Of a stretch of 64,000 nt of DNA, positions 7,167 through 63,865 are shown piece after piece. The notes beneath the pieces are model-generated. The model was not told the origin of the DNA. It saw only the letters and a list, made by a program, of their open reading frames with translations, and did no database searches. Origin of the DNA: Nitrospira tepida (GTDB lineage Bacteria; Nitrospirota; Nitrospiria; Nitrospirales; Nitrospiraceae). A program made the translations under genes and the position numbers. Each line of letters starts with the position of its first letter. Position 1 is the stretch's first letter. The DNA lies in contig NZ_OX365700.1 of NCBI RefSeq assembly GCF_947241125.1, forward strand, positions 2,698,001 to 2,762,000. Direction: 5' to 3'.

Positions 7167-8582
7167 ATGCATATCATCACGGTCGGTCTCAGCCATAAAA
7201 CCGCCCCCGTTGAAATCCGTGAACGGCTCGCCGTGCCGGAAAGCCGCCTGGGCGAGGCCCTGACGAGACTCTGTTCCTATCCCGGCATCAAAGAAGGCCT
7301 GCTCCTGTCGACCTGCAACCGGGTGGAAGTATACGCCGTCGTCGATGCCGTCGATGCCGGCTACCACCGCGTGCAGGAGTTCCTGGCCGACACGCATCTC
7401 TCGCTCTCCTCCGAGCAACTGACCCCGCATCTCTATTGGCATACGGGCGATCGGGCGATCGCCCACCTGTTTCGCGTGGCGTCGAGCCTCGACTCGATGA
7501 TCGTCGGGGAATCTCAGATTCTTGGACAGATCAAGGAGGCCTATGACGCGGCCTTGACTCATAAAGCCACCGGCGTCGTCTTGAACAAGGTGGTCAAGAA
7601 GGCGATATCCGTGGCCAAGCGGGTCCGCACCGAGACCAAAATCGCCGAAACCGCCGTCTCGGTCAGTTACGCCGCCGTCGAGCTGGCGAAGAAGATCTTT
7701 TCGAATCTCAGCGAGCGGACCGTGTTGCTTGTCGGGGCGGGGGAAATGGCCAAACTGGCCGCCAAACATTTCGTGGCCCAAGGTGTGCGGCACATCCGCG
7801 TGACCACGCGCAACCCGGTCAATGCCATCGAGTTGGCCAAGCGGTTCAACGGAGTTCCGGTGCCATTCGATGATTTTCCGACCGAAATGATCGCCTCGGA
7901 CATTTTGCTCTGCTCGACCGGCGCCTCGCACTACCTGATCACGCCCGAGCAGGTGCAGCATGCCGTCCGGCAACGGATGAACCGCCCGATTTTCCTGATC
8001 GACATTTCCGTCCCCCGCAATATTGATCCGGCGGTCCGGCACATCGACAACGCCTTCCTCTTCGACATCGACGATCTGAAGCTGCGCGTCGAGCAGAATC
8101 GCGAAGAGCGGCTGCGCGAGGCGGAGAAAGCCGAATCGATGGTGGCCGAAGAAGTCGGCGTGTTGCAGCAATGGATGAAATCGTTGGAGGTGACCCCGAC
8201 GATCGTGGCGCTGCGCAGCAAGGCCGACGCGGTCAAGAAGGCCGAGATGGAGCGCCTGCAAGCCCGCCTGAACCAACTGTCTCCGCAAGATCAGGAAATG
8301 GTGGAGTCCCTCGCCTCCGCCATCGTCAACAAGCTCCTGCACGGCACGATGGTCACCTTGAAGGCCGAGGCGGATTCCTCCTCCGGTGCTTTGTTTGTCG
8401 AGGCGGCGCGAAGATTTTTCAATCTCGAAGAGGCGGCCGGATCAGTCCGGACCTCGGCTCGATGCACCCGCCCGGAGGCGATTTCCGGCCAGACGGAAGA
8501 GGAGGCCTCCTACCGTGCCCAGAACGAGGAGAACGACAGGATGCGTGCGGACCAGCCGGTGCGTCTGCGGCAACCATCATGA
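7167..8582 (+). CDS. hemA: Glutamyl-tRNA reductase
   Basis: A 471-residue enzyme for the first committed step of C5-pathway haem synthesis, converting glutamyl-tRNA to glutamate-1-semialdehyde with NADPH. The N-terminal catalytic domain has the nucleophile Cys50 in LLLSTCNRVEVYA. It is followed by GESQILGQIKEAY, the NADP Rossmann domain (VLLVGAGEMAKLAAKHF) and the C-terminal dimerisation helices. The tail after about residue 425 is hydrophilic and slightly longer than usual. The start overlaps the end of the ccsA/hemX reading region by a 1-nt gap. Confidence 0.97.
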   Translation: MHIITVGLSHKTAPVEIRERLAVPESRLGEALTRLCSYPGIKEGLLLSTCNRVEVYAVVDAVDAGYHRVQEFLADTHLSLSSEQLTPHLYWHTGDRAIAHLFRVASSLDSMIVGESQILGQIKEAYDAALTHKATGVVLNKVVKKAISVAKRVRTETKIAETAVSVSYAAVELAKKIFSNLSERTVLLVGAGEMAKLAAKHFVAQGVRHIRVTTRNPVNAIELAKRFNGVPVPFDDFPTEMIASDILLCSTGASHYLITPEQVQHAVRQRMNRPIFLIDISVPRNIDPAVRHIDNAFLFDIDDLKLRVEQNREERLREAEKAESMVAEEVGVLQQWMKSLEVTPTIVALRSKADAVKKAEMERLQARLNQLSPQDQEMVESLASAIVNKLLHGTMVTLKAEADSSSGALFVEAARRFFNLEEAAGSVRTSARCTRPEAISGQTEEEASYRAQNEENDRMRADQPVRLRQPS

Positions 8583-8772
8583 GAGAGGTGGATCACGAGG
8601 CTGCTCCTCATCTTCTTCAACGACCGGAAAACTGGACCGGCCAGGAACCGTCTTCATCATGACCTCGGTGCTCCAATCACCCGCAGCTTGAACCGCCGCC
8701 CTGTGACCCATCATCGATGAGCAACCGAGGCGCACAGATTCAGGAGCGACCCAGTCCGCCTGGGAGAACCGC

Positions 8773-9714
8773 ATGACTCTGCAATCGCGCCAACCACTCG
8801 TGCTCGGCACCCGCGCCAGCAAGCTCGCCCTGCAACAGAGTCGTTGGGTGGCGGAGCAGGTCATGAACCTGAACCCCGGCCTGCGGGTGGAATTGAAGGA
8901 AATTCGGACATCCGGCGATAAGATCCTCGACGTGCCGCTGGCCAAGATCGGCGGGAAGGGCTTGTTCGTCAAGGAAATCGAGGATGCGCTGCTCGCGAGG
9001 GACATCGACTTCGCCGTCCATAGCATGAAGGACGTGCCCACCCAGTTGCCCGACGGACTCGACATCGTCTGTGTGCCGCCGCGTGAAGATCCTCGCGACG
9101 CCCTGATCGCCCGCGAGGTCAAGCGCTTCGAAGACCTGCCGTGCGGCGCCACGATCGGCACGAGCAGCCTGAGGCGTCAGGCCCAATTGCTCCATCACCG
9201 ACCGGACCTTGTGGTTGAGATGTTGCGGGGCAACCTCGACACCCGCCTTCGCAAACTGCGCGAGGGCCTCTATGACGCGATCGTCCTCGCCGCTGCGGGG
9301 CTGAAGCGTTTGGGTTGGCAGGAGCAGGTGACTCAGTACCTGCCGGTCGAGATCAGCCTGCCGGCCATCGGCCAGGGGGCCCTGGGGATCGAGGCCAGGC
9401 GGGACGATGCCTTTGTCGTCTCTATCCTGGCGAGGCTGGAAGATGCCGCCGCCCGTTCGGCCGTGACGGCCGAACGGGCCCTGCTCCATCGTCTGGAAGG
9501 AGGGTGCCAGGTCCCCATCGCCGGCCATGCTTCGCTTCAGGGAGACCGCCTCCGGCTGGCGGCCTTGGTCGGACGGGTCGATGGCTCACGGCTGGTTCAC
9601 GATCAACTGGAAGGACCGCTGTCGGACGCGTCCCGGATCGGAGCCGAGCTGGCCGAGCGTCTGCTGCGGCAAGGAGCCCGTGAGATCCTGGATCAGATTT
9701 ACGGAAGGACGTGA
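8773..9714 (+). CDS. hemC: Porphobilinogen deaminase (hydroxymethylbilane synthase)
   Basis: A 313-residue cytoplasmic enzyme that polymerises four porphobilinogens into hydroxymethylbilane. Visible motifs are LGTRASKLALQQS, the KDVPTQLPDG substrate loop, GTSSLRRQAQL, and the dipyrromethane-cofactor cysteine Cys245 in LEGGCQVPIAGHA. A 190-bp gap without a visible promoter or gene separates it from hemA. The stop overlaps the next start as GTGA. Confidence 0.98.
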   Translation: MTLQSRQPLVLGTRASKLALQQSRWVAEQVMNLNPGLRVELKEIRTSGDKILDVPLAKIGGKGLFVKEIEDALLARDIDFAVHSMKDVPTQLPDGLDIVCVPPREDPRDALIAREVKRFEDLPCGATIGTSSLRRQAQLLHHRPDLVVEMLRGNLDTRLRKLREGLYDAIVLAAAGLKRLGWQEQVTQYLPVEISLPAIGQGALGIEARRDDAFVVSILARLEDAAARSAVTAERALLHRLEGGCQVPIAGHASLQGDRLRLAALVGRVDGSRLVHDQLEGPLSDASRIGAELAERLLRQGAREILDQIYGRT

Positions 9715-11273
9715 GGTTCGTGGGAGCCATAGCAGGAAAAATCTACCTTGTCGGCGCAGGCCCCGGAGACCCAGGTTTGCTGACCTTGAAGGGGAAACAT
9801 TGTCTCGAGCAGGCAGACTCGGTGTTCTACGATTACCTGGCCAATCCCTCCCTGCTCGATTATGCGCGTCCGAATGCGGAACGGATCTATGTCGGCCGGC
9901 GGGGGCGAGGGGCCTATCTGGACCAGCAGGAGATCAACCGCTTGATTATCGCGAATGCCCGGGAGGGGAAGATTGTCGTGCGGCTGAAAGGCGGCGATCC
10001 CTTCGTCTTTGGACGGGGTGGGGAGGAGGCGGAGGCGGTGGCGGCGGCTGGCTTGCCTTTTGAAATCGTCCCCGGCGTAACCTCCGCCACCGCCGTCCCG
10101 GCCTATGCCGGCATTCCCGTCACGCATCGGACCCTGGCCTCTACCGTCGCCTTCGTCACAGGCCACGAGGATCCGAACAAGGAAACGGAACTGTTGGAAT
10201 GGCCCAAGCTCGCCACGGCGCAGGGAACCCTCGTGTTTCTGATGGGCCTGAAGAATCTCCCCCTGATCGTCGATCGTCTGATCAAAGAAGGCCGCTCCGC
10301 TGAGACCCCCGTCGCCTTGATTCACTGGGGTTCCTGGCCCAAGCAACGGACCGTCACCGGGACGCTCCGGGACATCGTCGCCAAGGGCCAGGCCGCCGGG
10401 CTCGAACCTCCGACCACGGTCGTCATCGGCGAGGTCGTCCGCCTGCGGGATCAACTGAACTGGTTTGAGCGGCAGCCGCTGTTCGGCAAGCGCATTCTCG
10501 TCACCAGGGCCAAGGAGCAGGCGGGAGAATTTTCCCGCTTGATCACCGCCCAGGGAGGGGAGCCGGTGGAATGTCCGACGATCGAGATCGCCGCGCCTCC
10601 GACCTGGGAGGCGCTTGACCAGGCGATCGACCAGCTCGCGTCGGTCGATTGGCTGGTCTTTACCAGCATGAATGGGATTGCACCTTTCATGAATCGGTTG
10701 TACAAACACGGGCGGGATGTCCGGGCCTTGGCGTCCGTGAAGATCTGTTGCATCGGCCCCCGCACCGCCCAGGAGCTGAGGCAGTACGGCCTGCAAGCGG
10801 ACCTGGTTCCGGACGAGTACCAGGCCGAAGGCCTGATCGAGTCGTTCCGGCGGATCGGCGTGAAGGGCCGGCGGATTCTGATCCCCCGCGCGGAGGTGGC
10901 GCGCGAGATGCTGCCAGCCGAGTTGACGGCAATGGGGGCGGAAGTCACGGTGGTACCGGTGTACCGGACGGTAAAGCCCGAAGCCGACACGGCTCGGTTG
11001 ACGAAGCGGTTGGCCGACAGGACGATCGACATGCTCACCTTTACCAGCTCGTCCACCGTGCGCAATTTTGCGAGCCTCTTCGAGTCGCCTGAAGAGATGG
11101 TTCGGCTCACGCAGGGCGTCCCGGTCGCCTGCATCGGTCCGATCACGGCGGACACGGCCCGCGAGCTGGGGCTGTCGGTGACGATTCAGGCCGGAGAGAA
11201 CACAATTCCGGCGTTGGCCGAGGCCATTGTGGAATACTATGGGGAATCTGTGCCTGACAGGTCGAAGACCTAA
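9711..11273 (+). CDS. cobA-hemD: Fused uroporphyrinogen-III C-methyltransferase / uroporphyrinogen-III synthase
   Basis: A 520-residue bifunctional protein. Residues about 8-255 are a SAM-dependent uroporphyrinogen-III methyltransferase (VGAGPGDPGLLTLKG at 14-28, LKGGDPFVFGRGGEE, PGVTSATAVPAYAGIP). Residues about 265-510 are uroporphyrinogen-III synthase (KRILVTRAKEQAGEFS, WLVFTSMNGI, FTSSSTVRNF). The fusion makes the tetrapyrrole ring and diverts it toward precorrin-2, and so toward sirohaem, haem d1 or cobalamin. A GTG start at 9711 overlaps the hemC stop. Confidence 0.96.
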   Translation: MRFVGAIAGKIYLVGAGPGDPGLLTLKGKHCLEQADSVFYDYLANPSLLDYARPNAERIYVGRRGRGAYLDQQEINRLIIANAREGKIVVRLKGGDPFVFGRGGEEAEAVAAAGLPFEIVPGVTSATAVPAYAGIPVTHRTLASTVAFVTGHEDPNKETELLEWPKLATAQGTLVFLMGLKNLPLIVDRLIKEGRSAETPVALIHWGSWPKQRTVTGTLRDIVAKGQAAGLEPPTTVVIGEVVRLRDQLNWFERQPLFGKRILVTRAKEQAGEFSRLITAQGGEPVECPTIEIAAPPTWEALDQAIDQLASVDWLVFTSMNGIAPFMNRLYKHGRDVRALASVKICCIGPRTAQELRQYGLQADLVPDEYQAEGLIESFRRIGVKGRRILIPRAEVAREMLPAELTAMGAEVTVVPVYRTVKPEADTARLTKRLADRTIDMLTFTSSSTVRNFASLFESPEEMVRLTQGVPVACIGPITADTARELGLSVTIQAGENTIPALAEAIVEYYGESVPDRSKT

Positions 11274-11326
11274 CGCGAAGCGGTGGACGTGAACTGATTT
11301 CCTTACAGACCAAGGAGGGGGACAGT

Positions 11327-11728
11327 ATGGTTCCAGTGAAGTCGTTTATGATTCCTGCGGAAAAATTCGTGACCGTCGGCCGTGACACGGACGTGAAGAC
11401 CGCGGCCGTCATGATGCGCGACCGCAACATCGGAAGCCTGATGGTCACCAGAGGGGGCGATTCCAAAGATGTGATCGGCATCGTGACCGATACCGACATG
11501 GTCCGCCGCGTCCTGGCCACCGCCGCGGATACCGCCAAGACGACGGTGGAAATGATCATGTCGGCGCCGATCCTGACGATCGATGAGAACAAGACGCTTT
11601 TGGACGCCAACGACATGATGGCCCAATCGCACCTGCGACACCTGGGGGTGTCACGGGGCGGCAAACTTGTGGGTATGATCTCGGTCCGTGATCTCGTCGT
11701 GTTCCTCACCAACTTGCCCAGGAAGTAA
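11327..11728 (+). CDS. CBS-domain pair protein
   Basis: A 133-residue stand-alone CBS-pair (Bateman module). The two CBS motifs span about residues 6-62 and 75-131, each with the characteristic turn (VMMRDRNIGSLMV and MAQSHLRHLGVSR) and a GIVTDTDMVRRVL-type ending. Such modules bind adenine nucleotides or SAM and regulate partner proteins. It lies between the cobA-hemD fusion and hemB with a strong AAGGAGGGGG ribosome-binding site, and its stop is 4 nt before the hemB start. A regulatory link to tetrapyrrole synthesis is inferred from position only. Confidence 0.9.
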   Translation: MVPVKSFMIPAEKFVTVGRDTDVKTAAVMMRDRNIGSLMVTRGGDSKDVIGIVTDTDMVRRVLATAADTAKTTVEMIMSAPILTIDENKTLLDANDMMAQSHLRHLGVSRGGKLVGMISVRDLVVFLTNLPRK

Positions 11729-11732
11729 TCCG

Positions 11733-12710
11733 ATGCCGTTTCCTTCCGAACGTCTTCGCCGCCTCCGGACGACCGAACCGATCCGGCGGATGGTGCGGGA
11801 AACCAGCCTGAACCCGGCAGACCTGATCTACCCCCTGTTTGTTCGGAGCGGGCAGGGGAGGCAGGACCCGATCGCCTCGATGCCGGGCCAGTACCGGCGG
11901 TCGATTGACTTGCTGATCAAGGAGGCGGCGGAGGCACAGCAACTGGGCATTCCCGCCGTCATTCTTTTCGGGATTCCGGACAGCAAAGACGAGCGGGGCA
12001 CTTCGGGGCTGGACCCCAACGGGATTGTGCCGCAGGCCGTCCGAGCCCTCAAGGACCAGGTACCGGGCCTGTTGGTGATCACCGATGTCTGCATCGACGA
12101 ATACACCTCGCACGGACATTGCGGGATCGTTCGAGAGGGAAAAATTCTCAACGACGAAACGCTCGATTGCCTGCAAACCATGGCCCTGGCCCACGCCCAA
12201 GCGGGGGCGGATATGGTGGCCCCTTCCGACATGATGGACGGGCGGGTCGGGGCGATCCGTGAGGCATTGGATCGAGCCGGGTTTGAGGATCTTCCGATCA
12301 TGGCCTATTCGGCCAAGTACGCGTCCTGTCTCTACGCTCCGTTTCGGGAGGCGGCGGACTCCAGCCCTTCGTTCGGCGACCGCCAGTCCTATCAGATGGA
12401 CCCGGCGAACCACCGGGAGGCGATGAGGGAGCTCCAATTGGACGTAGCCGAAGGAGCCGATATTCTCATGGTTAAGCCGGCCCTTCCGTATCTGGACATC
12501 ATCGCCGCAGCCCGTGCGACCTATCCCCATCCGATCGCGGCCTATCAAGTCAGCGGCGAGTACAGCATGATCAAGGCCGCCGCCCAGGCGGGCTGGTTAG
12601 ATGAGGCGCGCGCCATGCTGGAGTCGCTGGTCAGCATCAAACGGGCAGGGGCCGACCTCATCCTGACTTATTTCGCGAAGGATGCTGCACGCCGCTTGCT
12701 TGCCGGATGA
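11733..12710 (+). CDS. hemB: Delta-aminolevulinic acid dehydratase (porphobilinogen synthase)
   Basis: A 325-residue enzyme condensing two aminolevulinates to porphobilinogen. The Schiff-base lysines are Lys195 (AYSAKYAS) and Lys248 (LMVKPALPYLD). The metal-site segment reads DVCIDEYTSHGHCG, with Cys120, Asp122 and Cys130 where classical zinc enzymes have three cysteines. The ATG at 11733 is chosen over an upstream in-frame start because the family begins at this point. Together with hemA, hemC and hemD it completes the path from glutamyl-tRNA to uroporphyrinogen, apart from hemL, which is not in the window. The stop overlaps ribF. Confidence 0.97.
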   Translation: MPFPSERLRRLRTTEPIRRMVRETSLNPADLIYPLFVRSGQGRQDPIASMPGQYRRSIDLLIKEAAEAQQLGIPAVILFGIPDSKDERGTSGLDPNGIVPQAVRALKDQVPGLLVITDVCIDEYTSHGHCGIVREGKILNDETLDCLQTMALAHAQAGADMVAPSDMMDGRVGAIREALDRAGFEDLPIMAYSAKYASCLYAPFREAADSSPSFGDRQSYQMDPANHREAMRELQLDVAEGADILMVKPALPYLDIIAAARATYPHPIAAYQVSGEYSMIKAAAQAGWLDEARAMLESLVSIKRAGADLILTYFAKDAARRLLAG

Positions 12711-13678
12711 CCATGCACGTCATCCGGAACCTCACGGGATATCAGCCGTCGTCCTATCCGGTCGCCACGATCGGCAACTTTGATGGGCAACACCGGGGAC
12801 ACCAGGCCCTGCTACGCAGCGTGGTCGAGCGGGCCCGGGAGACCGGCGGCCGGGCCCTGGTGATCACCTTCGATCCCCATCCGGTCCGTATCCTGGCTCC
12901 CCATGTGGCCTTGAAATTTCTGACCTCTCCCGAGGAAAAACTGGCGGCCTTTGCCTCGACCGGCATCGACGAGGTCATCTTTTTGGAATTCTCGCCGGCT
13001 TTGGCGGAGCTGACGCCCGAGGCCTTTGTTCGGGACATCCTGGTGGCCCGGCTTTCCCTGCGGGAGCTCTTTGTTGGAGAACATTTCGCGTTCGGCAAGG
13101 GGCGCGCCGGCACCGTTGCCGACCTTCAACGGTTCGGCGCCCTGTATGGATTTTCCATCCACCCCATGAAGCCCGTGCTCTGGGAGGGGGGGATCATCAG
13201 TTCGACGAAGGTGCGCTCGGCGATTTTGGCTGGCCGGATGGAACTGGCGACGGACTACCTCGGCCGGCTCTATGCCCTAAGCGGCCTGGTCGAACAGGGG
13301 GACCAGCGGGGCCGGAGCCTTGGCTGGCCAACCGCCAACCTGGCCCTCCCGGCCGATCGCGTGGTGCCTCCGGATGGGGTGTATGCGGCGCTGACGGTTC
13401 ATGGCGCCCAGGTATTTGATTCGGTCGCCTACATTGGAACGAGGCCGACGTTCGAAACGAAGGGCGAGCGGATCCTGGAAGTCTACTTGCTCAACGAGCA
13501 GCGGACATTGTACGGTGAGCGCATTACGGTGCAGTTCGCTTCATATCTACGCGGCGATATGACGTTTCCGAGCCCCGACGCGCTCTCCCGCCAGATCCAG
13601 GAGGACGTGCAGCAGGCCGAAGCCCGTCTAAAAACGGTGCAGATCGAATATCGCAAATCGGCGGAACAATCAGCATGA
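12707..13678 (+). CDS. ribF: Bifunctional riboflavin kinase / FAD synthetase
   Basis: A 323-residue enzyme converting riboflavin to FMN and then FAD. The N-terminal nucleotidyltransferase domain carries ATIGNFDGQHRGHQALL (about residues 21-37) and ISSTKVRSAIL. The C-terminal kinase domain (about 185-315) carries GRSLGWPTANL. The ATG overlaps the hemB stop in an ATGA arrangement, and the stop likewise overlaps tilS. Confidence 0.97.
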   Translation: MTMHVIRNLTGYQPSSYPVATIGNFDGQHRGHQALLRSVVERARETGGRALVITFDPHPVRILAPHVALKFLTSPEEKLAAFASTGIDEVIFLEFSPALAELTPEAFVRDILVARLSLRELFVGEHFAFGKGRAGTVADLQRFGALYGFSIHPMKPVLWEGGIISSTKVRSAILAGRMELATDYLGRLYALSGLVEQGDQRGRSLGWPTANLALPADRVVPPDGVYAALTVHGAQVFDSVAYIGTRPTFETKGERILEVYLLNEQRTLYGERITVQFASYLRGDMTFPSPDALSRQIQEDVQQAEARLKTVQIEYRKSAEQSA

Positions 13679-15174: not shown

Positions 15175-15723
15175 ATGGAGCGGATGTTCGGTCGCCCGGT
15201 CGTCACGCAGGAACAAATGCGGGCCCGCATCAAGGAACTCGGCAAACAAATTTCCGAGGATTATGCGGGAAAGGATCTCGTCCTGGTGGGGGTCCTCAAG
15301 GGAGCCTATGCCTTCTATGCTGACCTGGCCCGGGCGATCAGGCTCCCGATGCGGGTCGATTTCATCGTCGTCAGGAGCTACGGCGCCGGGTCGAAAACCT
15401 CCGGCAAGGTCAAGCTGGTGTCGGATCTGACGGAGGAGATCAAAGGCCGAGACGTGTTGCTGGTGGAAGACATCGTGGATTCCGGATTGACGGCCTCCTA
15501 TCTCCTCAAGATCTTGACCAAACGGAAGCCTCGCTCGCTCCGCATCTGCACCTTGCTCAGCAAACCGGACCGGCGTCAAGTGCATCCGCCCGTCGATTAC
15601 GTGGGGTTCAATATCCCGAACCAATACGTGGTGGGGTACGGTCTCGATTACCAGCAGAAATACCGAAATCTGCCTTACTTGGTCGCGCTGGATCAGGTGG
15701 CGGAACTCGACCAGGAGTTATGA
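15175..15723 (+). CDS. hpt: Hypoxanthine phosphoribosyltransferase
   Basis: A 182-residue purine-salvage enzyme making IMP (and GMP) from free base and PRPP. The PRPP-binding signature VLLVEDIVDSGLTA is at residues 94-107, with GVLKGAYAFYADLAR near the N-terminus and the flexible-loop segment around RSYGAGSKTSGKV. It has a GGAGGGG ribosome-binding site and sits between tilS and ftsH as in many bacteria. Confidence 0.97.
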   Translation: MERMFGRPVVTQEQMRARIKELGKQISEDYAGKDLVLVGVLKGAYAFYADLARAIRLPMRVDFIVVRSYGAGSKTSGKVKLVSDLTEEIKGRDVLLVEDIVDSGLTASYLLKILTKRKPRSLRICTLLSKPDRRQVHPPVDYVGFNIPNQYVVGYGLDYQQKYRNLPYLVALDQVAELDQEL

Positions 15724-15821
15724 GGACGGTTGTCAGCCTCGGGTTCTGTATGTTAGCATTTCGCAGCGATAGCTCCGCACTCATCGCATAGCCGTCGTCT
15801 TGTGGTGTGAGGAGGGACTGA

Positions 15822-17633
<1,812 letters not shown>

Positions 17634-57018: not shown

Positions 57019-57645
57019 ATGATCTTGAAGGGCTTCAGGCGGAATCCATCTTGGAACTTCCTGTCAAGCACGAGCCTATTGGCTTGGACCCTGGCCATGC
57101 ATACAGGATGTGCATGGCATGCTGAATCAGCGGATCACCTGTGGGGACCAACGGTCTTCCGTGTCGCGGGCCCGCCTGAGAGCCAAGCCTTTCTTGCGGA
57201 ACAAGTCTGGCTGCCGCTGTTGGTTGAAGGTGGAAAACGGTGGGGGATCACCATCGGCTACTTTAGCAAGCTCCTGAGTCTTCCGATGGCCCTGCAGAGC
57301 CCAGATGCCACCGCGCAACCAAGACATCCGTTTTCATGGCATTCCCCGGCAGCGATCCCAATCGGAGACTGGAGAATCAGCCCCTTCTATCTCTCGATCG
57401 AACGTGAAGTTGAGGCCGAATTCGTGGCGAAACTGGTCATTGGCCTCCAACTCTCAGCCAGCTTCGACAAGGAAGGGTCGAATCTCACCGTCGGTGCGTC
57501 ACGAACCACCGGTTTTTGGCCACATCCCGATGCGGTCTATCTCTTGGAATTTTGCGGAACCCACCCGCTCGCGCTGCAATTTCTTGTCTGCGATGAGAAG
57601 CAGAACGCCTCAATTGATCGGTGCTTAGAGGAGGTTTTCCGATGA
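57019..57645 (+). CDS. Exported protein of unknown function
   Basis: A 208-residue protein that I do not recognise. A hydrophobic N-terminal segment (about residues 14-30) suggests Sec export, with possible cleavage near AWHA; a HTGC string there is only a weak lipobox. The mature part has WGPTVFRVAGPPESQ, a WGITIGYFSKLL hydrophobic stretch and WRISPFYLSIEREVEAEFVAKL. Two cysteines near the C-terminus (FCGTHPL and FLVCDEK) may pair. The ATG at 57019 follows AAGG; a GTG at 56965 in frame is an alternative. Its stop overlaps the next start as ATGA, tying it to the lipoprotein gene. Confidence 0.6.
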   Translation: MILKGFRRNPSWNFLSSTSLLAWTLAMHTGCAWHAESADHLWGPTVFRVAGPPESQAFLAEQVWLPLLVEGGKRWGITIGYFSKLLSLPMALQSPDATAQPRHPFSWHSPAAIPIGDWRISPFYLSIEREVEAEFVAKLVIGLQLSASFDKEGSNLTVGASRTTGFWPHPDAVYLLEFCGTHPLALQFLVCDEKQNASIDRCLEEVFR

Positions 57646-58127
57646 CTGCCTTCACGTGTCTCCGGATAGTACCAGTCCTCGGCTTGATCGCGTCCGTCTG
57701 CGGATCATACGGCTGCAAGGACTATCTCGTCGTCACCACCGCCACGAAGTTCGGGCTGGAGGTCTCGCAGGTGGCCAAAGAGCCTCCCAAGGTCGTAATC
57801 GGCTACAAACGCGAGGAAACCGCCATCATCCCAGCCGAACACCGGAATGCAACGGACGACACCATAAAACCAGACGGCACTCATAACACCGATACCTACT
57901 CAGTCCTCGCCGAGTTTTGCGTGATGGCAAATCCCTCCCTGTGGGACTTCTTCCAGGGGCTCTCGCCGACCAGTCGCAACGTGCCGGACGGGTTGCAAAT
58001 TCGGTCATTCTTCGCGACCGGGATGGCGGCAAATAAGGCCGCCGATAGAGTCGAGACACGACACTATTTTCGAGACAACGTTCTCGAACGAACAATCGAC
58101 AAGCGCAAAGAGAAACGGTGTCTCTAG
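57642..58127 (+). CDS. Small lipoprotein, GYKRxE family (first copy)
   Basis: A 161-residue putative lipoprotein (export segment 8-20, lipid-accepting Cys25 in SYGC). The mature part has a segment FGLEVS...PPKVVIGYKREETAIIP (about 38-65), then DTYSVLAEF and FFATGMAANKAA. The same three blocks recur in the next gene, so the two are paralogues. The repeated strand-forming blocks suggest a small beta-sandwich. Function is unknown. It is coupled to the gene upstream and lies 30 bp before its paralogue. Confidence 0.7.
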   Translation: MTAFTCLRIVPVLGLIASVCGSYGCKDYLVVTTATKFGLEVSQVAKEPPKVVIGYKREETAIIPAEHRNATDDTIKPDGTHNTDTYSVLAEFCVMANPSLWDFFQGLSPTSRNVPDGLQIRSFFATGMAANKAADRVETRHYFRDNVLERTIDKRKEKRCL

Positions 58128-58157
58128 CCGATATTGATTGCAGAAAGGAATGATGCC

Positions 58158-59180
58158 ATGCGGCTCTCATGCCAGCGCGCACATCGATGGTTACTCATGC
58201 TGGGTCCACTGCTGATGACGGCTGGTTGCAACCCTTCCATTTACTTTTCTACCGGCACCACGGTGGGCCTTGAAGCCACTCCACCGACCGGCGAGACGCC
58301 CCCAGCCATCACATTTGGTTACAAAAGAGCAGAGTTGGCATTGGTCCCGGTGGTCGAGTTTAACCCGCCGTCCGATGGTCAGGCCAAGCTCACAGCCAAA
58401 TCATCCGATCTCGGCTGTTCAGAAACCAAGAATGACGCCAAGCCTCACAACCAGACGGGAACCGCCGATACAGGGGGCTCGGGTGATGGCAAGGCGCAAC
58501 CCCGGCAGACAACAAAGGTCGACGCCTTCTCCGTGTTGGCTGTCTTTCATTTGGCCGTGAACTGGTTCGGGCCGGCCCAGATTGAGCAGCACTTTGCAAC
58601 CGGCTGCGCGGCGAGAAACCTCATTCATGGATTGACGGAAGAGGAAGAAGACAAGAGGCTTGCGGAGGAAGCGAGGCAGAACCTCAAGGAAGCTGAGGAA
58701 TTGGTCAAAACCACCACAGAAGGAGCCCAACGGCTCAAGAAACACGCCGAAAAACTTGAAAATGATGCTCGGGAGCTCAAGAAGAAAATTGAAGATGATG
58801 CAGGCAAGCTTGCGGGCGAATCCACACAGAAAGAAAAAGAAACACGAGAGAAGAAGCTCAGAGAGTCGGGCGAGAAAGCGAAAGAATGGCAACAAACAGC
58901 GGAAAGGCTTAAATCAGAGTTGAACGGTATTAATCGCCTTGAAGAAGCCAAAGACAAGGCCGAGAGCGCTCAACACAAGGCCGAACAGGCAATGAACACA
59001 GAAGAGGTTCGTCCCGGCGCCAAACAGACTAAGGAAAGCGCAGAGAAGCTAGTCAGTAATCTCAAAGGCAGTGCGCCGGACGTGGCGGCTCTGATCAAGG
59101 ATGCGCAGGACACACTCGAAAACGTCCTTACACTCCTCGATCAGGTCAAGGCTAAGGTGCCAGCCAAAGGCACCTCATAG
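58158..59180 (+). CDS. Lipoprotein with GYKRxE domain and coiled-coil tail (second copy)
   Basis: A 340-residue putative lipoprotein (lipobox TAGC, Cys24). The N-terminal half repeats the blocks of the preceding gene: VGLEATPP, FGYKRAELALVPV, DAFSVLAVF and HFATGCAARN. From about residue 155 the protein is a long charged Lys/Glu/Ala-rich helix, probably a coiled coil spanning more than 150 residues, which could bridge the periplasm. The ATG at 58158 is preferred over one eight codons upstream because the export signal starts there. The gene is visibly less GC-rich than those before 56 kb. Confidence 0.72.
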   Translation: MRLSCQRAHRWLLMLGPLLMTAGCNPSIYFSTGTTVGLEATPPTGETPPAITFGYKRAELALVPVVEFNPPSDGQAKLTAKSSDLGCSETKNDAKPHNQTGTADTGGSGDGKAQPRQTTKVDAFSVLAVFHLAVNWFGPAQIEQHFATGCAARNLIHGLTEEEEDKRLAEEARQNLKEAEELVKTTTEGAQRLKKHAEKLENDARELKKKIEDDAGKLAGESTQKEKETREKKLRESGEKAKEWQQTAERLKSELNGINRLEEAKDKAESAQHKAEQAMNTEEVRPGAKQTKESAEKLVSNLKGSAPDVAALIKDAQDTLENVLTLLDQVKAKVPAKGTS

Positions 59181-59250
59181 GGGGCGACGGAATATATTCG
59201 TTATCAATGCTCATCAAGACCTGAACAGAAAGATAAGAGGGGATACCCCC

Positions 59251-62200
59251 ATGTGGAAGAAACTCTCCATCCTTTGTTGGCTTGTCCTCCCATGCGCCCT
59301 GTTCAGCCCGATGCCTGCCTATCCAGGTCATCCACACGTGCAAGAGAATCCTCACGCAGCCCCATGGATCGGCATCGCGCTGTCGGGCGGAGGGATCCGT
59401 GCCGCGGCCTTTTCGCACGGGGTCATGCTGGAATTGCGAAAACTGTGCTTGCTTAGATCTCCGCAAGATTCCACAGAAGCAGACAACCACAATGACCACG
59501 ACACCCCTTCAACGCAATTCTCTCTCTATTACCTCGAAGAGACGGACTACTCGGATGACGACCGTTCGAACCCCTGCGGTCGACACGGAGGCGCCTCTTT
59601 CTTGGATAACACCCATTTCCTGTCCGGGGTGTCCGGCGGAGCCATCACCGCCGCCTACTATAAAACCCATCCGGAACGCGTGACCGAATTCGGCCAGTTG
59701 CTCAAGGACGCGCGATTGGCGAGTGAACTCTTCTCCGGCAAGAAGAAGACACCCATTTGGCGTCCTCCGGTGATGCTCCTCGCCTCATTGTTCGACACGG
59801 TCTTTCAGACCTTTAAGCTCCCAATCATCCCGATCCCTGAGATAGAGGTGGCTCCGTTTGCCACGATGTGGCTCTATGACGGCTTGTTCGAGAGCGAACA
59901 GTTGACGCAGGTGTATAACGATCTGTTCCTGGAGGACTATACGTTCGGCGAGCTCGAAAAGCAGACCCACCGTCCCGAGACGCTGACAGAGTCCTTGTTC
60001 GGCCACGCGGCCAATACGAAGCGGAATGCCATCGGACGCGCTCACCTGTTGATTCATGCCACCGATATCGCCAACGGCAGAATCTTCACGTTCGACAAGG
60101 AGACGTTCGCCTGCCTGGGCGACGTCGAAGCCTTCCGAGACCTCGACCTGGCGGCAGCCGTAGCCGCCTCAAGCAGTCTACCAGGCGTCTTCTCCCCGAT
60201 GCGGTTGAAATCGCATTTCAAGACGATCGAGGGGGCACGCATTCCCACCAACTGTCCGCTCATTCTGGGCGATCAAGTCCGATCACCTCTATTGGTGGAC
60301 GGCGGCGTCAGCGACAATTTAGGCGTGACCGGACTGCTCCGAACCATTGTGGAACGGAAAAACGGGATAACCTTTCCACCTGACGAGCGGATGCTAGCAA
60401 CGGGACGCGGGCTGCCCTTGAACCCAGACGAGATCGTTCGCTCATCTCGATCGACGGTATCCCAAGCTCAGACAACGGAGATCACTACGATCCAGCGGGC
60501 GAACCCGAAATCTCAAAAGGCATTCCTGCTCGTCGTCAATGCGGGAGTCAGCTCCACATCCTCGTTACCGAGGTTGGGCGGCCATCTCGACAACAGTTTT
60601 GACGTCCTCATGAGAGACCGCACCGACCTTTCCCGCGTGATCGCCGAACATCTGCTGGACAACTTCGGCTTCGGCCTCGTCGAATTGAACATGCGCGATC
60701 TCGTCAAGAACAACCGAGTCGTGACCAGAATCGTCAAGGAGGGTTTGGCGATTCAGAACAAGACGAAGTCGACGCCCGAGTCGATTCGCAAGGTCGCACA
60801 GGCCTTCGACTTCACCGAGATGGAGCGAAAGGTCCTCAGCGACCTCAATAATATCAGCTTGCTTCCCACCAAGGACGAGATCGATACCTTGATCCTGGCA
60901 GGACGGGCCGTGGTGGCGGAACTGTCGGACACCATCAAACACAGGTACGAAGAATTGGCGGATAAACGATTTGAGGCAAGCTGCGACAGCATTATCAATC
61001 CGCAACGGAGCTATTGCTGGCCAGCCAGCCTTGAGACGCCACATGTGGTCGCCAACAAGATCGGCGTCCTGCTCGACGTCCTCACCAAGACCGGCGAAGA
61101 TTTTTCGCGGACCACGGCCGAGAATCGATCCGCTCAACTGGCTCAGATTAAAGAACGCCTATGGGAACTGTACAAGTATGAGACCAGGGCATTGGATCTT
61201 TTTGCACAGACTGATAACTCATTCGCGCAATTGAAACGCGACATCGCCTATGATGACTGTGTGCGGTCGGTATTCACAAACCCTCAAGCCGCTCCTAGTT
61301 GCGAACCTGAGCGGATTACAAAACATCGCTTAGGCAGCATTAACCCAACTCTTACACCGCTGGAAGCGGCTCTTGACGGCAACGTCCTGCCTAACCAGGA
61401 TCGCAATGATTATCTTTCGTTACTATTCAAACAAAATGCCGACTTCAAGCAAAATGCCGACCTCGCCGAGTTGAAGAACAAGAAGCAAGAGTTGGATAAT
61501 TGGGCAGCCAAATTCGCAGCACAGCTATCAACTATCGCAAATGATCCGGAGAAGCTGGGGAAGCCTCCTTGGCAGGAATCGCCTTGGTATGACTACCTCC
61601 TTGCCAGGCTCTCGATGCTGCAGGAGAAAACGATGGAAGGCTTTCATTACCTCTATCGAGGCGCCACCGCCTTTCCAGACGATACCAACCTCTCGTTCCT
61701 GCTGGGCTATTACGCCATTCACGTGAACCGCGACTTTCATGGGGGCCTGAAACACTTGTTTCAAGCCAGAGAAAAGGCCGAAGACAGAAAGAAGCGGATC
61801 GAATGGCTTCCCGTTGCTTCTCCGCAAGTGGGAGAGAAGACGGACTGGAAGATTGCCACCCAAGAGCGTTTCGCAAGAGCTGAAGACTATTTCATGCTGC
61901 AATATGCCAAGTATGTTGCCCTATCTCCGTTTCCAGTTGAAGGCCGCGCCGAGTTTGTGACTGGCGAGGAGGTGGATGCCTGGCTCAATCGTACCTTTCC
62001 TGATGGCCATGGCGGCAATGCGTTCTCGACTCTAGCCCTGCTCGCGGAGCAGACAAGAGAACGTCACAAAACGGATATAACAGTTGCGTGGTGCGGCGTG
62101 ACTCACAGACTCGACAGATTGTCTCTCCCTATGGAAGTCAGGCAGGCCATCAAAGCCTTCCTCGCTCATTTTGGTCACTTCGAATGTCAACAGAACGATG

Positions 62201-62745
62201 ACAGCCCGCTTCTCGGCGACCCCCTGCTCATTGACGAACACGTCCGTTTCCAGGATGCACCTTGTGGAGATGTGAACGACCACAACACAGTCGTGAGCAT
62301 CGATTCAAGGAATGCCAAAGCGGTTTGTGAGGCATTTGCGAAGCTCCGGCACAGTGTTCGACAGCTTTTGGCTCCCAGGACCGCCTTAAACTATGCTCGG
62401 GCGCAGGCCCGGAGGATCTATGAATCTTTTTCGAAGCAAGAACAGTCTCAATCAGACCAAGAGGTTACATCCCAAGAGGTTACATCGCCTCACTACCTTT
62501 ATCTCTGGCAGCGCGCTGACGTCTACGGGTTGGTCGTTCTGATCCATGCCGTTCAAAAAGATTGTCCACAGCGGGCAGAAGACGTGCGAACCGCACGGCG
62601 ACTGTTTCATGTTGCTCGCGCCTCCGTTCCTGATGATCGACGGCTGAACAGGGATGCAGACGTCATCAATGGCGTAAAAACGCGGATCGACCACCTCATC
62701 ACACTTACGAAGGGTCTCAGTTGCGGTAGGAATGGGGACCTGTGA
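59251..62745 (+). CDS. Secreted patatin-like phospholipase with long C-terminal region
   Basis: A 1164-residue protein with a signal peptide (about 1-25). Residues about 38-400 are a patatin domain: oxyanion loop SGGGIR (45-50), nucleophile Ser128 in GVSGG, and the partner aspartate Asp350 in the DGG motif. Patatins hydrolyse acyl chains of phospholipids. The remaining 750 residues match no family I know; the part around 790-870 (WYDYLLARLSMLQEKTMEGF, LSFLLGYYAIHVN) looks like helical TPR-type repeats. The ATG at 59251 is where the export signal starts; open codons upstream overlap the previous gene. It closes the four-gene exported cassette. Confidence 0.85.
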   Translation: MWKKLSILCWLVLPCALFSPMPAYPGHPHVQENPHAAPWIGIALSGGGIRAAAFSHGVMLELRKLCLLRSPQDSTEADNHNDHDTPSTQFSLYYLEETDYSDDDRSNPCGRHGGASFLDNTHFLSGVSGGAITAAYYKTHPERVTEFGQLLKDARLASELFSGKKKTPIWRPPVMLLASLFDTVFQTFKLPIIPIPEIEVAPFATMWLYDGLFESEQLTQVYNDLFLEDYTFGELEKQTHRPETLTESLFGHAANTKRNAIGRAHLLIHATDIANGRIFTFDKETFACLGDVEAFRDLDLAAAVAASSSLPGVFSPMRLKSHFKTIEGARIPTNCPLILGDQVRSPLLVDGGVSDNLGVTGLLRTIVERKNGITFPPDERMLATGRGLPLNPDEIVRSSRSTVSQAQTTEITTIQRANPKSQKAFLLVVNAGVSSTSSLPRLGGHLDNSFDVLMRDRTDLSRVIAEHLLDNFGFGLVELNMRDLVKNNRVVTRIVKEGLAIQNKTKSTPESIRKVAQAFDFTEMERKVLSDLNNISLLPTKDEIDTLILAGRAVVAELSDTIKHRYEELADKRFEASCDSIINPQRSYCWPASLETPHVVANKIGVLLDVLTKTGEDFSRTTAENRSAQLAQIKERLWELYKYETRALDLFAQTDNSFAQLKRDIAYDDCVRSVFTNPQAAPSCEPERITKHRLGSINPTLTPLEAALDGNVLPNQDRNDYLSLLFKQNADFKQNADLAELKNKKQELDNWAAKFAAQLSTIANDPEKLGKPPWQESPWYDYLLARLSMLQEKTMEGFHYLYRGATAFPDDTNLSFLLGYYAIHVNRDFHGGLKHLFQAREKAEDRKKRIEWLPVASPQVGEKTDWKIATQERFARAEDYFMLQYAKYVALSPFPVEGRAEFVTGEEVDAWLNRTFPDGHGGNAFSTLALLAEQTRERHKTDITVAWCGVTHRLDRLSLPMEVRQAIKAFLAHFGHFECQQNDDSPLLGDPLLIDEHVRFQDAPCGDVNDHNTVVSIDSRNAKAVCEAFAKLRHSVRQLLAPRTALNYARAQARRIYESFSKQEQSQSDQEVTSQEVTSPHYLYLWQRADVYGLVVLIHAVQKDCPQRAEDVRTARRLFHVARASVPDDRRLNRDADVINGVKTRIDHLITLTKGLSCGRNGDL
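61426..61461 (+). repeat. In-frame 18-bp tandem duplication
   Basis: Two adjacent copies with one mismatch encode the repeated hexapeptide FKQNAD inside the patatin C-terminal region. Confidence 0.85.
62457..62486 (+). repeat. In-frame 15-bp tandem duplication
   Basis: Two perfect adjacent copies of CCAAGAGGTTACATC encode QEVTS twice near the patatin C-terminus. Confidence 0.9.
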
Positions 62746-63079
62746 CGCATTTTCGAAACTGCGGACGAACTCTCTAGGATATGTGGCAAGGGATCGCACC
62801 CTGAACCAGCCATGACGGCAGAATCATCCTGCCAACCCTGCCTGAGCGCTTATGTCTTACGCCGCGGATGGCCGACGCGAAGACCGGGAAAGCGGTGGTA
62901 GTCGCAGTCCGTCGTGATCTACTCGCTTCCGCTCTTGATGGCCAGCGCGGGCAAAAAACGCTTCTGGCAAGGACAAACTGATCTGCACCGAAAACTTGTT
63001 CCAGCCGCTGCACCCTGTGTTGTATGTCTCCGGATAGCATGGCCTGGAGAGGTAGACCTCGTGCCTCTCCGTTCTCGGG

Positions 63080-63108
63080 TTGCAGGACCTCTTGTATCGG
63101 ACTATACT
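63080..63108 (+). promoter_or_regulatory. Promoter of the Phd-VapC operon
   Basis: A -35 TTGCAG (63080-63085), 17-nt spacing and a -10 TATACT (63103-63108). The predicted start, about 63115, falls inside the palindrome at 63111-63124. Confidence 0.65.
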
Positions 63109-63110
63109 GG

Positions 63111-63124
63111 TCATTATTCAATGA
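63111..63124. promoter_or_regulatory. Palindromic operator candidate for the antitoxin
   Basis: TCATT and AATGA are separated by 4 nt and begin 2 nt after the -10 box. A repressor bound here would block the promoter, the usual autoregulation by antitoxins. Confidence 0.45.
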
Positions 63125-63140
63125 TCTTGGAGATCTCTTC

Positions 63141-63440
63141 ATGAAGCGTGCGGCTGTGTCCACGATTAAAGCAACATTCAGTGCGTGCCTGGCGAAAGTA
63201 AAAGCCGGCGAAGAGCTGTTGGTGATGGAGCGCGGCAAGCCGGTTGCTAAGTTGGTGCCGATTCCGAAAGACGCAAGTGGAGAGGCGACCGCTATGCAGT
63301 TGCGGGAGTTATCGCGTGCGGGCCTTGTGCGAGCGGGAACAGGGAAGTTGCCTCCGAACTTTTGGAAAATGGCCAGACCGCGGGACAAGAGAGGACGAGC
63401 CCTTGCGGCTCTGGTGGCTGACCGCGCCGAGGGACGGTGA
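63141..63440 (+). CDS. Phd/YefM-type antitoxin
   Basis: A 99-residue antitoxin. The N-terminal half (AAVSTIKATFSACLAKVKAGEELLVMERGKPVAKLVPI) is the typical Phd/YefM DNA-binding and dimerisation fold. The C-terminal half is Lys/Arg-rich and would wrap the toxin. The ATG at 63141 is the family start; longer frames upstream are not homologous. The toxin start overlaps its stop as GTGA, which keeps the ratio of the two proteins fixed. Confidence 0.9.
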   Translation: MKRAAVSTIKATFSACLAKVKAGEELLVMERGKPVAKLVPIPKDASGEATAMQLRELSRAGLVRAGTGKLPPNFWKMARPRDKRGRALAALVADRAEGR

Positions 63441-63865
63441 AGTTCTGGGATGCCTCCGCTCTGATTCCGCTCTGCCTGCATGAGCGGCACTCGTCCGCGC
63501 TCAAACGGCTTGCCCAGGAGGATGAGGCGCTTGTCGCCTGGTGGGGATCACCGGTGGAGTGCCTTTCGGCGTTTGCCCGTCTTCGGCGGGAGGCGACGCT
63601 TAGTGAGGTCGAGGAAGAGCAAGCGGGCTTGATCTTGCGGACGATTCAAAGGACCTGGACAGAAGTGGAGCCGGCGAATGTGGTGCGCGAACAGGCGAGC
63701 CGTGTCTTACGTCTTCATCCCTTGCGAGCCGCAGACGCGCTGCAACTGGCAGCGGCATTGGTGTGGAGTCAGGGCGATCCGCTGCAGCGCGAGTTCATTT
63801 GCCTCGATCAACGGCTGAGAGAAGCGGCCCGGCGAGAGGGGTTTACTGTCTTGCCGAAAATGTGA
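63437..63865 (+). CDS. VapC-type PIN-domain toxin ribonuclease
   Basis: A 142-residue PIN-domain protein. The four acidic residues expected of the Mg2+-dependent active site are present: Asp5 (FWDASAL), Glu41 (PVECLSAF), Asp100 (LRAADALQLAAAL) and Asp124 (ICLDQRL). VapC toxins cleave tRNA or rRNA when freed from antitoxin. It starts at a GTG overlapping the antitoxin stop. Confidence 0.92.
   Translation: MKFWDASALIPLCLHERHSSALKRLAQEDEALVAWWGSPVECLSAFARLRREATLSEVEEEQAGLILRTIQRTWTEVEPANVVREQASRVLRLHPLRAADALQLAAALVWSQGDPLQREFICLDQRLREAARREGFTVLPKM

What the first reader, a model, noticed from the sequence alone, without database searches (positions are those of the whole stretch)
57019..62745. 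Four-gene cassette of exported proteins built around a large secreted patatin
The genes are co-oriented and tightly spaced (ATGA overlap, then 30 and 70 bp): an unknown exported protein, two paralogous lipoproteins and a 1164-residue patatin with signal peptide and intact Ser128/Asp350. All four have export signals, so this is unlike cytoplasmic patatin-based defence systems. A lipoprotein with a long coiled coil next to a secreted phospholipase suggests an envelope-localised lipid-hydrolysing or secretion complex. I know of no described system of this composition.
Basis: partly seen in the sequence, partly recalled or inferred. Interest (0 to 1): 0.7.

Follow-up and report, generated by a model that had tools for sequence, protein, structure and literature searches.

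The report
Mobile lipoprotein cassette with swappable lipase
Four neighbouring genes of a Nitrospira-type bacterium form a mobile unit of three membrane-anchored lipoproteins plus one exported lipid-cutting enzyme, and in relatives the lipoproteins stay while the enzyme is exchanged for an unrelated one, which points to an undescribed cell-envelope lipid-hydrolase module.

Summary
In detail: four co-oriented genes (57019-62745), spacing, export signals and catalytic Ser128/Asp350 as described; the first gene is very probably a lipoprotein too. The unit is real: all four genes recur in five other genomes of two further genera. Among the four closest copies, DNA similarity ends within about 100 bases of the cassette ends and the flanks are unrelated each time, so it moves as a unit; it is GC-poor and under purifying selection. 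P2 and P3 are paralogues of a domain ("GYKRxE") without a database family, and a second short lipoprotein type (P1 or P1-like) precedes this domain in 22 of 22 scorable loci. The enzyme is exchangeable: two patatin clades, or alpha/beta-hydrolase-like lipoproteins; P1 is 70% identical between a patatin locus and a hydrolase locus. No T6SS sheath gene is in the genome.

Best reading: an outer-membrane lipoprotein platform (P1 plus a P2:P3 pair) that holds or controls an interchangeable exported lipid-ester hydrolase. The genetic link is shown; complex, location, activity and purpose are inferred. Immunity and envelope-defence readings stay open. Phyla outside Nitrospirota could hardly be tested, and structure models were too weak to name a fold.

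The parts
57019..57645 (+). P1, 208-aa probable lipoprotein, constant partner; no database family
   Evidence: orthologues directly upstream of P2 in 7 other genomes
57642..58127 (+). P2, 161-aa lipoprotein with one GYKRxE domain
57801..57818 (+). GYKREE motif of P2
   Evidence: invariant G54 Y55 K56 R57 E59
58158..59180 (+). P3, 340-aa lipoprotein, GYKRxE domain plus lineage-specific charged helical/coiled-coil tail
58317..58334 (+). GYKRAE motif of P3
58638..59156 (+). predicted coiled-coil tail of P3 (about residues 161-333), only in window, L019, L030, L031
   Evidence: weak coiled-coil-type matches (SMC, Rad50); absent from L032-L034 and L044
59251..62745 (+). P4, 1164-aa exported patatin-like phospholipase (Sec-type signal, no lipobox)
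59377..60333 (+). patatin domain of P4 (residues 43-361)
59632..59634 (+). codon of catalytic Ser128 (GVSGG)
   Evidence: invariant
60298..60300 (+). codon of catalytic Asp350 (DGG)
   Evidence: invariant

Best explanation
The cassette is a horizontally moving cell-envelope module. P1 and a P2:P3 pair are lipoproteins, probably anchored to the periplasmic face of the outer membrane, and form a platform that docks, localises or regulates an exported lipid-ester hydrolase made from the same operon (here the patatin P4, which enters the periplasm by its Sec signal and hydrolyses phospholipid). The platform is generic and the enzyme interchangeable: other copies carry a different patatin clade or an alpha/beta-hydrolase-like lipoprotein. 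Shown: gene order, recurrence, shared-segment borders, lipoprotein and Sec-type signals, intact catalytic motifs, exchange of the enzyme beside a conserved platform. Inferred: physical complex, outer-membrane location, phospholipase activity, and what the activity is for.
For: Four-gene order conserved in window, L019 (N. defluvii FP929003), L030 and L031 (48-78% protein identity), plus divergent patatin versions in L033 and L044. DNA similarity L019/L030 spans 7849-13561 / 7365-12959, i.e. the cassette and nothing else (with one gap inside P3); flanks are unrelated in every pair of these. GC of cassette 0.549 versus 0.623 in the rest of the window, lower than flanks in all 22 loci. dN/dS 0.07-0.29 for P1, P2, P4 and 0.24-0.52 for P3. 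Enzyme exchange: L032 605-aa and L034 691-aa exported proteins with GHSTG / GHSFG directly downstream of P3; L032's enzyme resembles L080's alpha/beta hydrolase (E 2e-94; Abhydrolase_6 hit). P1 of patatin locus L033 is 70% identical to P1 of hydrolase locus L034, more than L034 to hydrolase locus L032 (54%). Independent recurrence: L114 (P1-like + two GYKRxE lipoproteins + 747-aa patatin lipoprotein) and L076 (P1-like + tandem GYKRxE protein + 560-aa patatin lipoprotein); these patatins are 57% identical to each other but barely alignable with P4. Tandem GYKRxE proteins suggest that P2 and P3 pair.
Against: About half of the GYKRxE loci have no lipid hydrolase in the same operon, some have a membrane protein instead, so the platform is not dedicated to lipases. 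No interaction, location or activity was tested. The hydrolase call for L034 rests on the GHSFG and HGW motifs only; Pfam gave nothing. P1 of the main clade (A3) and the P1-like lipoproteins elsewhere (A8) share only marginal similarity. Structure models are weak.
Confidence: 0.5

Rival explanations
1. Toxin and self-protection: the exported lipase is a weapon against other cells, and the lipoproteins are periplasmic immunity proteins that inhibit it, as Tli3 (an outer-membrane lipoprotein) inhibits the T6SS phospholipase Tle3.
For: Enzyme class and lipoprotein partner resemble the Tle3/Tli3 pair (PMC9860674); duplicated lipoproteins and orphan copies without enzyme are usual for immunity genes (general knowledge); mobile, patchy distribution.
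Against: P4 has its own Sec-type signal, unlike T6SS effectors (general knowledge); the genome has no T6SS sheath protein (PF05591). The lipoproteins do not change with the enzyme: 70% P1 identity across a patatin/hydrolase exchange. The lipoproteins lie upstream of the enzyme and are three in number.
Confidence: 0.2
2. Envelope-sited anti-phage or stress response: P1 + GYKRxE lipoproteins sense an event at the envelope and switch on a membrane-attacking effector that is interchangeable (patatin, alpha/beta hydrolase or membrane protein), like effector exchange in CBASS but outside the cytoplasm.
For: Exchange among membrane-acting proteins next to a constant pair; mobility and low GC; three loci have defence-type neighbours: L112 TIR, TPR-S and CapV-type phospholipase, L080 SIR2-like, L081 FRG/PDC-S15.
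Against: None of the four window proteins is convincingly matched in PADLOC; most loci, the window included, have no defence genes beside them apart from a toxin-antitoxin pair; no sensing domain recognised.
Confidence: 0.15
3. Secreted nutritional or remodelling lipase with dedicated folding or secretion helpers, comparable in role to the Lif foldases of Pseudomonas and Burkholderia lipases.
For: Operons of lipoproteins with exported lipid hydrolases of several kinds.
Against: One helper set serving unrelated folds (patatin and alpha/beta hydrolase) is not how Lif works (general knowledge); no Pfam match of P1-P3 to such a family; many copies lack an enzyme.
Confidence: 0.1

Closest known systems
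Patatin-like phospholipases (Pfam PF01734), e.g. CapV, ExoU, PlpD (recalled from general knowledge)
   Same: P4 has the patatin domain with GGGxR, GxSGG and DGG motifs
   Different: Exported by a Sec-type signal, about 800-residue C-terminal region without a family, three lipoprotein partners; no POTRA/barrel domain recognised and no CBASS genes beside it
T6SS phospholipase effector/immunity pairs (Tle/Tli, e.g. Tle3-Tli3)
   Same: Lipid hydrolase encoded with an outer-membrane lipoprotein (PMC9860674)
   Different: Here a Sec-type signal on the enzyme, no T6SS sheath gene, lipoproteins conserved across enzyme exchange
Lipase-specific foldases (Lif)
   Same: Envelope-anchored helper co-encoded with an exported lipase (general knowledge)
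   Different: No Lif match; one lipoprotein set beside unrelated enzyme folds
CBASS-type operons with interchangeable effectors
   Same: Constant part plus exchangeable membrane-attacking effector including patatins (general knowledge)
   Different: Everything here is exported; no nucleotide cyclase; defence role untested

Membership tests
Patatin-like phospholipases (PF01734) | Patatin domain above the curated cut-off | tested here: met
   56.7 bits against 27.7
Patatin-like phospholipases (PF01734) | Ser (GxSxG) and Asp (DGG/A) dyad | tested here: met
   Ser128 and Asp350 invariant in six homologues
Patatin-like phospholipases (PF01734) | Phospholipase A activity | not testable with these tools
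   needs enzyme assay
T6SS phospholipase effector/immunity (Tle/Tli) | T6SS in the genome | tested here: not met
   no TssB/VipA (PF05591) in the own genome, control found in E. coli
T6SS phospholipase effector/immunity (Tle/Tli) | Effector without its own Sec signal, loaded on VgrG/Hcp | tested here: not met
   N-terminal Sec-type signal in P4 and homologues
T6SS phospholipase effector/immunity (Tle/Tli) | Lipoprotein inhibits the enzyme | not testable with these tools
   needs assay; comparative evidence speaks against enzyme-specific partners
CBASS / CapV | Cytoplasmic patatin next to a CD-NTase | tested here: not met
   P4 has an export signal; no CBASS family match for P1-P4
Type Vd secretion (PlpD) | C-terminal POTRA and beta-barrel after the patatin domain | tested here: inconclusive
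   no Pfam domain after residue 361; model mostly helical there but pLDDT 39
Lipase-specific foldase (Lif) | Lif sequence family in a partner | tested here: not met
   no Pfam or NCBIfam match of that kind for P1-P3
GYKRxE lipoprotein family (defined here) | Lipobox, TxTxxG[LIV], PPx..GYKRxE..P, ATGxAA | tested here: met
   P2 and P3 in the 33-row alignment; profile E 3.7e-46 and 1e-42

The most novel reading that the evidence does not exclude
A previously undescribed envelope sensor-effector system: a constant pair of lipoprotein families (P1 and GYKRxE) controls interchangeable membrane-attacking effectors (patatin, alpha/beta hydrolase, membrane proteins) in the periplasm and spreads between bacteria as a compact cassette for defence or competition.
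Probability: 0.2. Interest if true: 0.85.

Novelty: new variant of a known kind. Interest (0 to 1): 0.6.

Why it matters
Two lipoprotein families with no database entry turn out to be the constant core of a mobile module whose enzyme is swapped between unrelated lipid hydrolases. Enzyme exchange beside a conserved core is the pattern seen in modular bacterial immune and toxin systems, but the known patatin systems of that kind are cytoplasmic; an exported counterpart would be new. Nitrospira are key nitrifiers and hard to manipulate, so a compact four-gene unit that can be moved to E. coli makes the question directly testable.

Tried and rejected
Pfam, NCBIfam, PHROGs and PADLOC for P1-P3: nothing beyond coiled-coil noise. 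PDB sequence search with profiles of P1, P2, GYKRxE and P4: nothing significant. AlphaFold of P4 with six rows: pLDDT 39, unusable. AlphaFold of a tandem GYKRxE protein: pLDDT 59, pTM 0.55, an antiparallel sheet plus helix per domain; Foldseek none below 1e-3, VIA Z below 5, with Mog1/PsbP/LpqN/Eag-like and StART-like chains recurring at Z 3-4.6, too weak to use. Plasmids and phages: no relatives of P4; plasmids none of P2 or of two other GYKRxE proteins. Genome contigs: scan with P4 alone found nothing, with the P2 alignment only Nitrospira; the patterns were strict, so distant phyla are not excluded. Centring genome search on another phylum and scanning viral contigs with A6 were not possible. 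T6SS effector/immunity rejected as membership. Papers: no description found of patatin with lipoproteins in Nitrospira (open-licence library only). No tRNA gene in the loci and no terminal repeats marking the cassette ends.

Full report
OBSERVATION. P4 is a patatin (PF01734, 56.7 bits, residues 43-361) with a Sec-type signal and no lipobox; Ser128 and Asp350 are invariant among six homologues. P2 and P3 carry lipoboxes at Cys25 and Cys24. P1 has an invariant Cys31 in eight orthologues, several with clear lipoboxes, so it is very probably a third lipoprotein. The residue after the Cys is A, K and N in P1, P2 and P3, not Asp, which by the E. coli sorting rule (general knowledge, not verified for Nitrospira) means outer membrane.

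RECURRENCE. P1 orthologues are in 8 of 175 family genomes, the window's included, and in 3 of 22 genera; each is directly followed by P2 and P3. L019, L030 and L031 have all four genes (P1 61-64%, P2 73-78%, P3 48-51%, P4 62-63% identity to the window); L033 and L044 have all four with a patatin whose catalytic part is 36-44% identical. So the full set is in five other genomes of two further genera, and the trio in two more. No orthologue was found outside Nitrospirota, but that was tested only by a strict-pattern scan and by plasmid and phage searches.

UNIT OF TRANSFER. Between L019 and L030 nucleotide similarity runs 7849-13561 and 7365-12959, against cassette borders 7854-13561 and 7365-12954, in two blocks separated by a divergent stretch inside P3. 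L030/L031 similarity starts 60 bp inside P1 and ends 45 bp after P4. Flanks share no long similarity among these loci (one search lists only short, mostly chance-level translated matches). Cassette GC is 0.549 against 0.623 in the rest of the window, and lower than the flanks in all 22 loci. dN/dS is 0.07-0.29 for P1, P2 and P4 and 0.24-0.52 for P3. Hence four intact, selected genes that change site together. No tRNA gene or terminal repeat explains how.

THE CONSTANT CORE. P2 and P3 are paralogues (E 1e-16). A joint profile finds relatives in 16 of 296 Nitrospirota genomes and, extended, in 21 of 175 genomes of the family. Many are single proteins with two tandem domains, some with an Ig-like tail (weak Big_2). 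Core motif: TxTxxG[LIV], PP...GYxRxE...P, ATGxAA. A short lipoprotein precedes the domain in all 22 loci with upstream sequence: 8 of the P1 type, 14 of a P1-like type. P1 and P1-like profiles are only marginally similar, so common descent of the two types is a suggestion, not a result. Fusion of two domains elsewhere suggests that P2 and P3 pair (inference).

THE EXCHANGED ENZYME. In L032 and L034 (genus g6) P1-P2-P3 are followed not by a patatin but by a 605-aa and a 691-aa exported protein with lipobox and GHSTG or GHSFG. The first resembles an alpha/beta hydrolase (weak DUF900), and its relative in L080 (32% identity over the length, E 2e-94) hits Abhydrolase_6. The two are not recognisably related to each other. 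L033 of the same genus has a patatin. P1 identity is 70% for L033/L034 (patatin/hydrolase) and 54% for L034/L032 (hydrolase/hydrolase); the concatenated tree groups L033 with L034 (support 0.886). P2 and P3 alone place L034 nearer L032 (64 and 56%) than L033 (58 and 50%), so the three genes differ here, but none shows the break expected if the lipoproteins had been replaced together with the enzyme. A second patatin clade, itself lipoprotein, follows GYKRxE genes in L114 (separate genes) and L076 (tandem protein); these patatins are 57% identical to each other and share only motifs with P4. Ten loci thus have an exported patatin or alpha/beta-hydrolase-like protein immediately downstream; there are four patatins in the whole own genome, so chance adjacency is not a reasonable explanation. 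Other loci carry a membrane protein or nothing recognisable instead.

MECHANISM. Best reading: an outer-membrane lipoprotein platform that binds or regulates an exported, exchangeable lipid-ester hydrolase (0.5). Immunity (0.2): Tli3, an outer-membrane lipoprotein, inhibits the phospholipase Tle3 (PMC9860674); but the genome lacks the T6SS sheath gene, P4 has a Sec-type signal, and the lipoproteins persist across enzyme exchange. Envelope defence (0.15): effector-like exchange, mobility, and defence-type neighbours at L112, L080 and L081, but not at most loci. Folding or secretion helper (0.1).

LIMITS. Structure predictions were too weak to name a fold. Activity, lipidation, location and interaction are untested. 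The hydrolase status of the L034 protein is motif-based. Breadth outside Nitrospirota is unknown.

Noticed in passing
window 63024-63865: Phd/YefM-type antitoxin (weak PF02604) followed by a PIN/VapC-like toxin ORF right beside the cassette.
   Followed up: partly
L112:927-4948 and 15443-16948: Near a P1-like + GYKRxE pair: a TPR-S protein, a CapV-type phospholipase matching PADLOC effectors, and TIR proteins.
   Followed up: partly
L034:16837-19962 and L082:69-3185: About 1040-aa proteins that by eye look like an alpha/beta hydrolase joined to a CHAT-like C-terminus, near GYKRxE loci in two genomes.
   Followed up: no
L077:7125-7868 and L082:9512-10309: Similar 247-265-aa membrane proteins a short way downstream of tandem GYKRxE genes; possible alternative partners.
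   Followed up: no
L080:9232-10200 and L112:5979-7028: Similar 322-349-aa membrane proteins adjoining the lipoprotein pair in two genomes, one downstream and one upstream.
   Followed up: no
L116:4006-6150: 714-aa lipoprotein with a GHSGG motif just upstream of a P1-like + GYKRxE pair; no Pfam match, possibly another exported hydrolase.
   Followed up: partly
L035:17158-18279: IS110-like transposase about 8 kb downstream of the cassette in the window's own genome.
   Followed up: no
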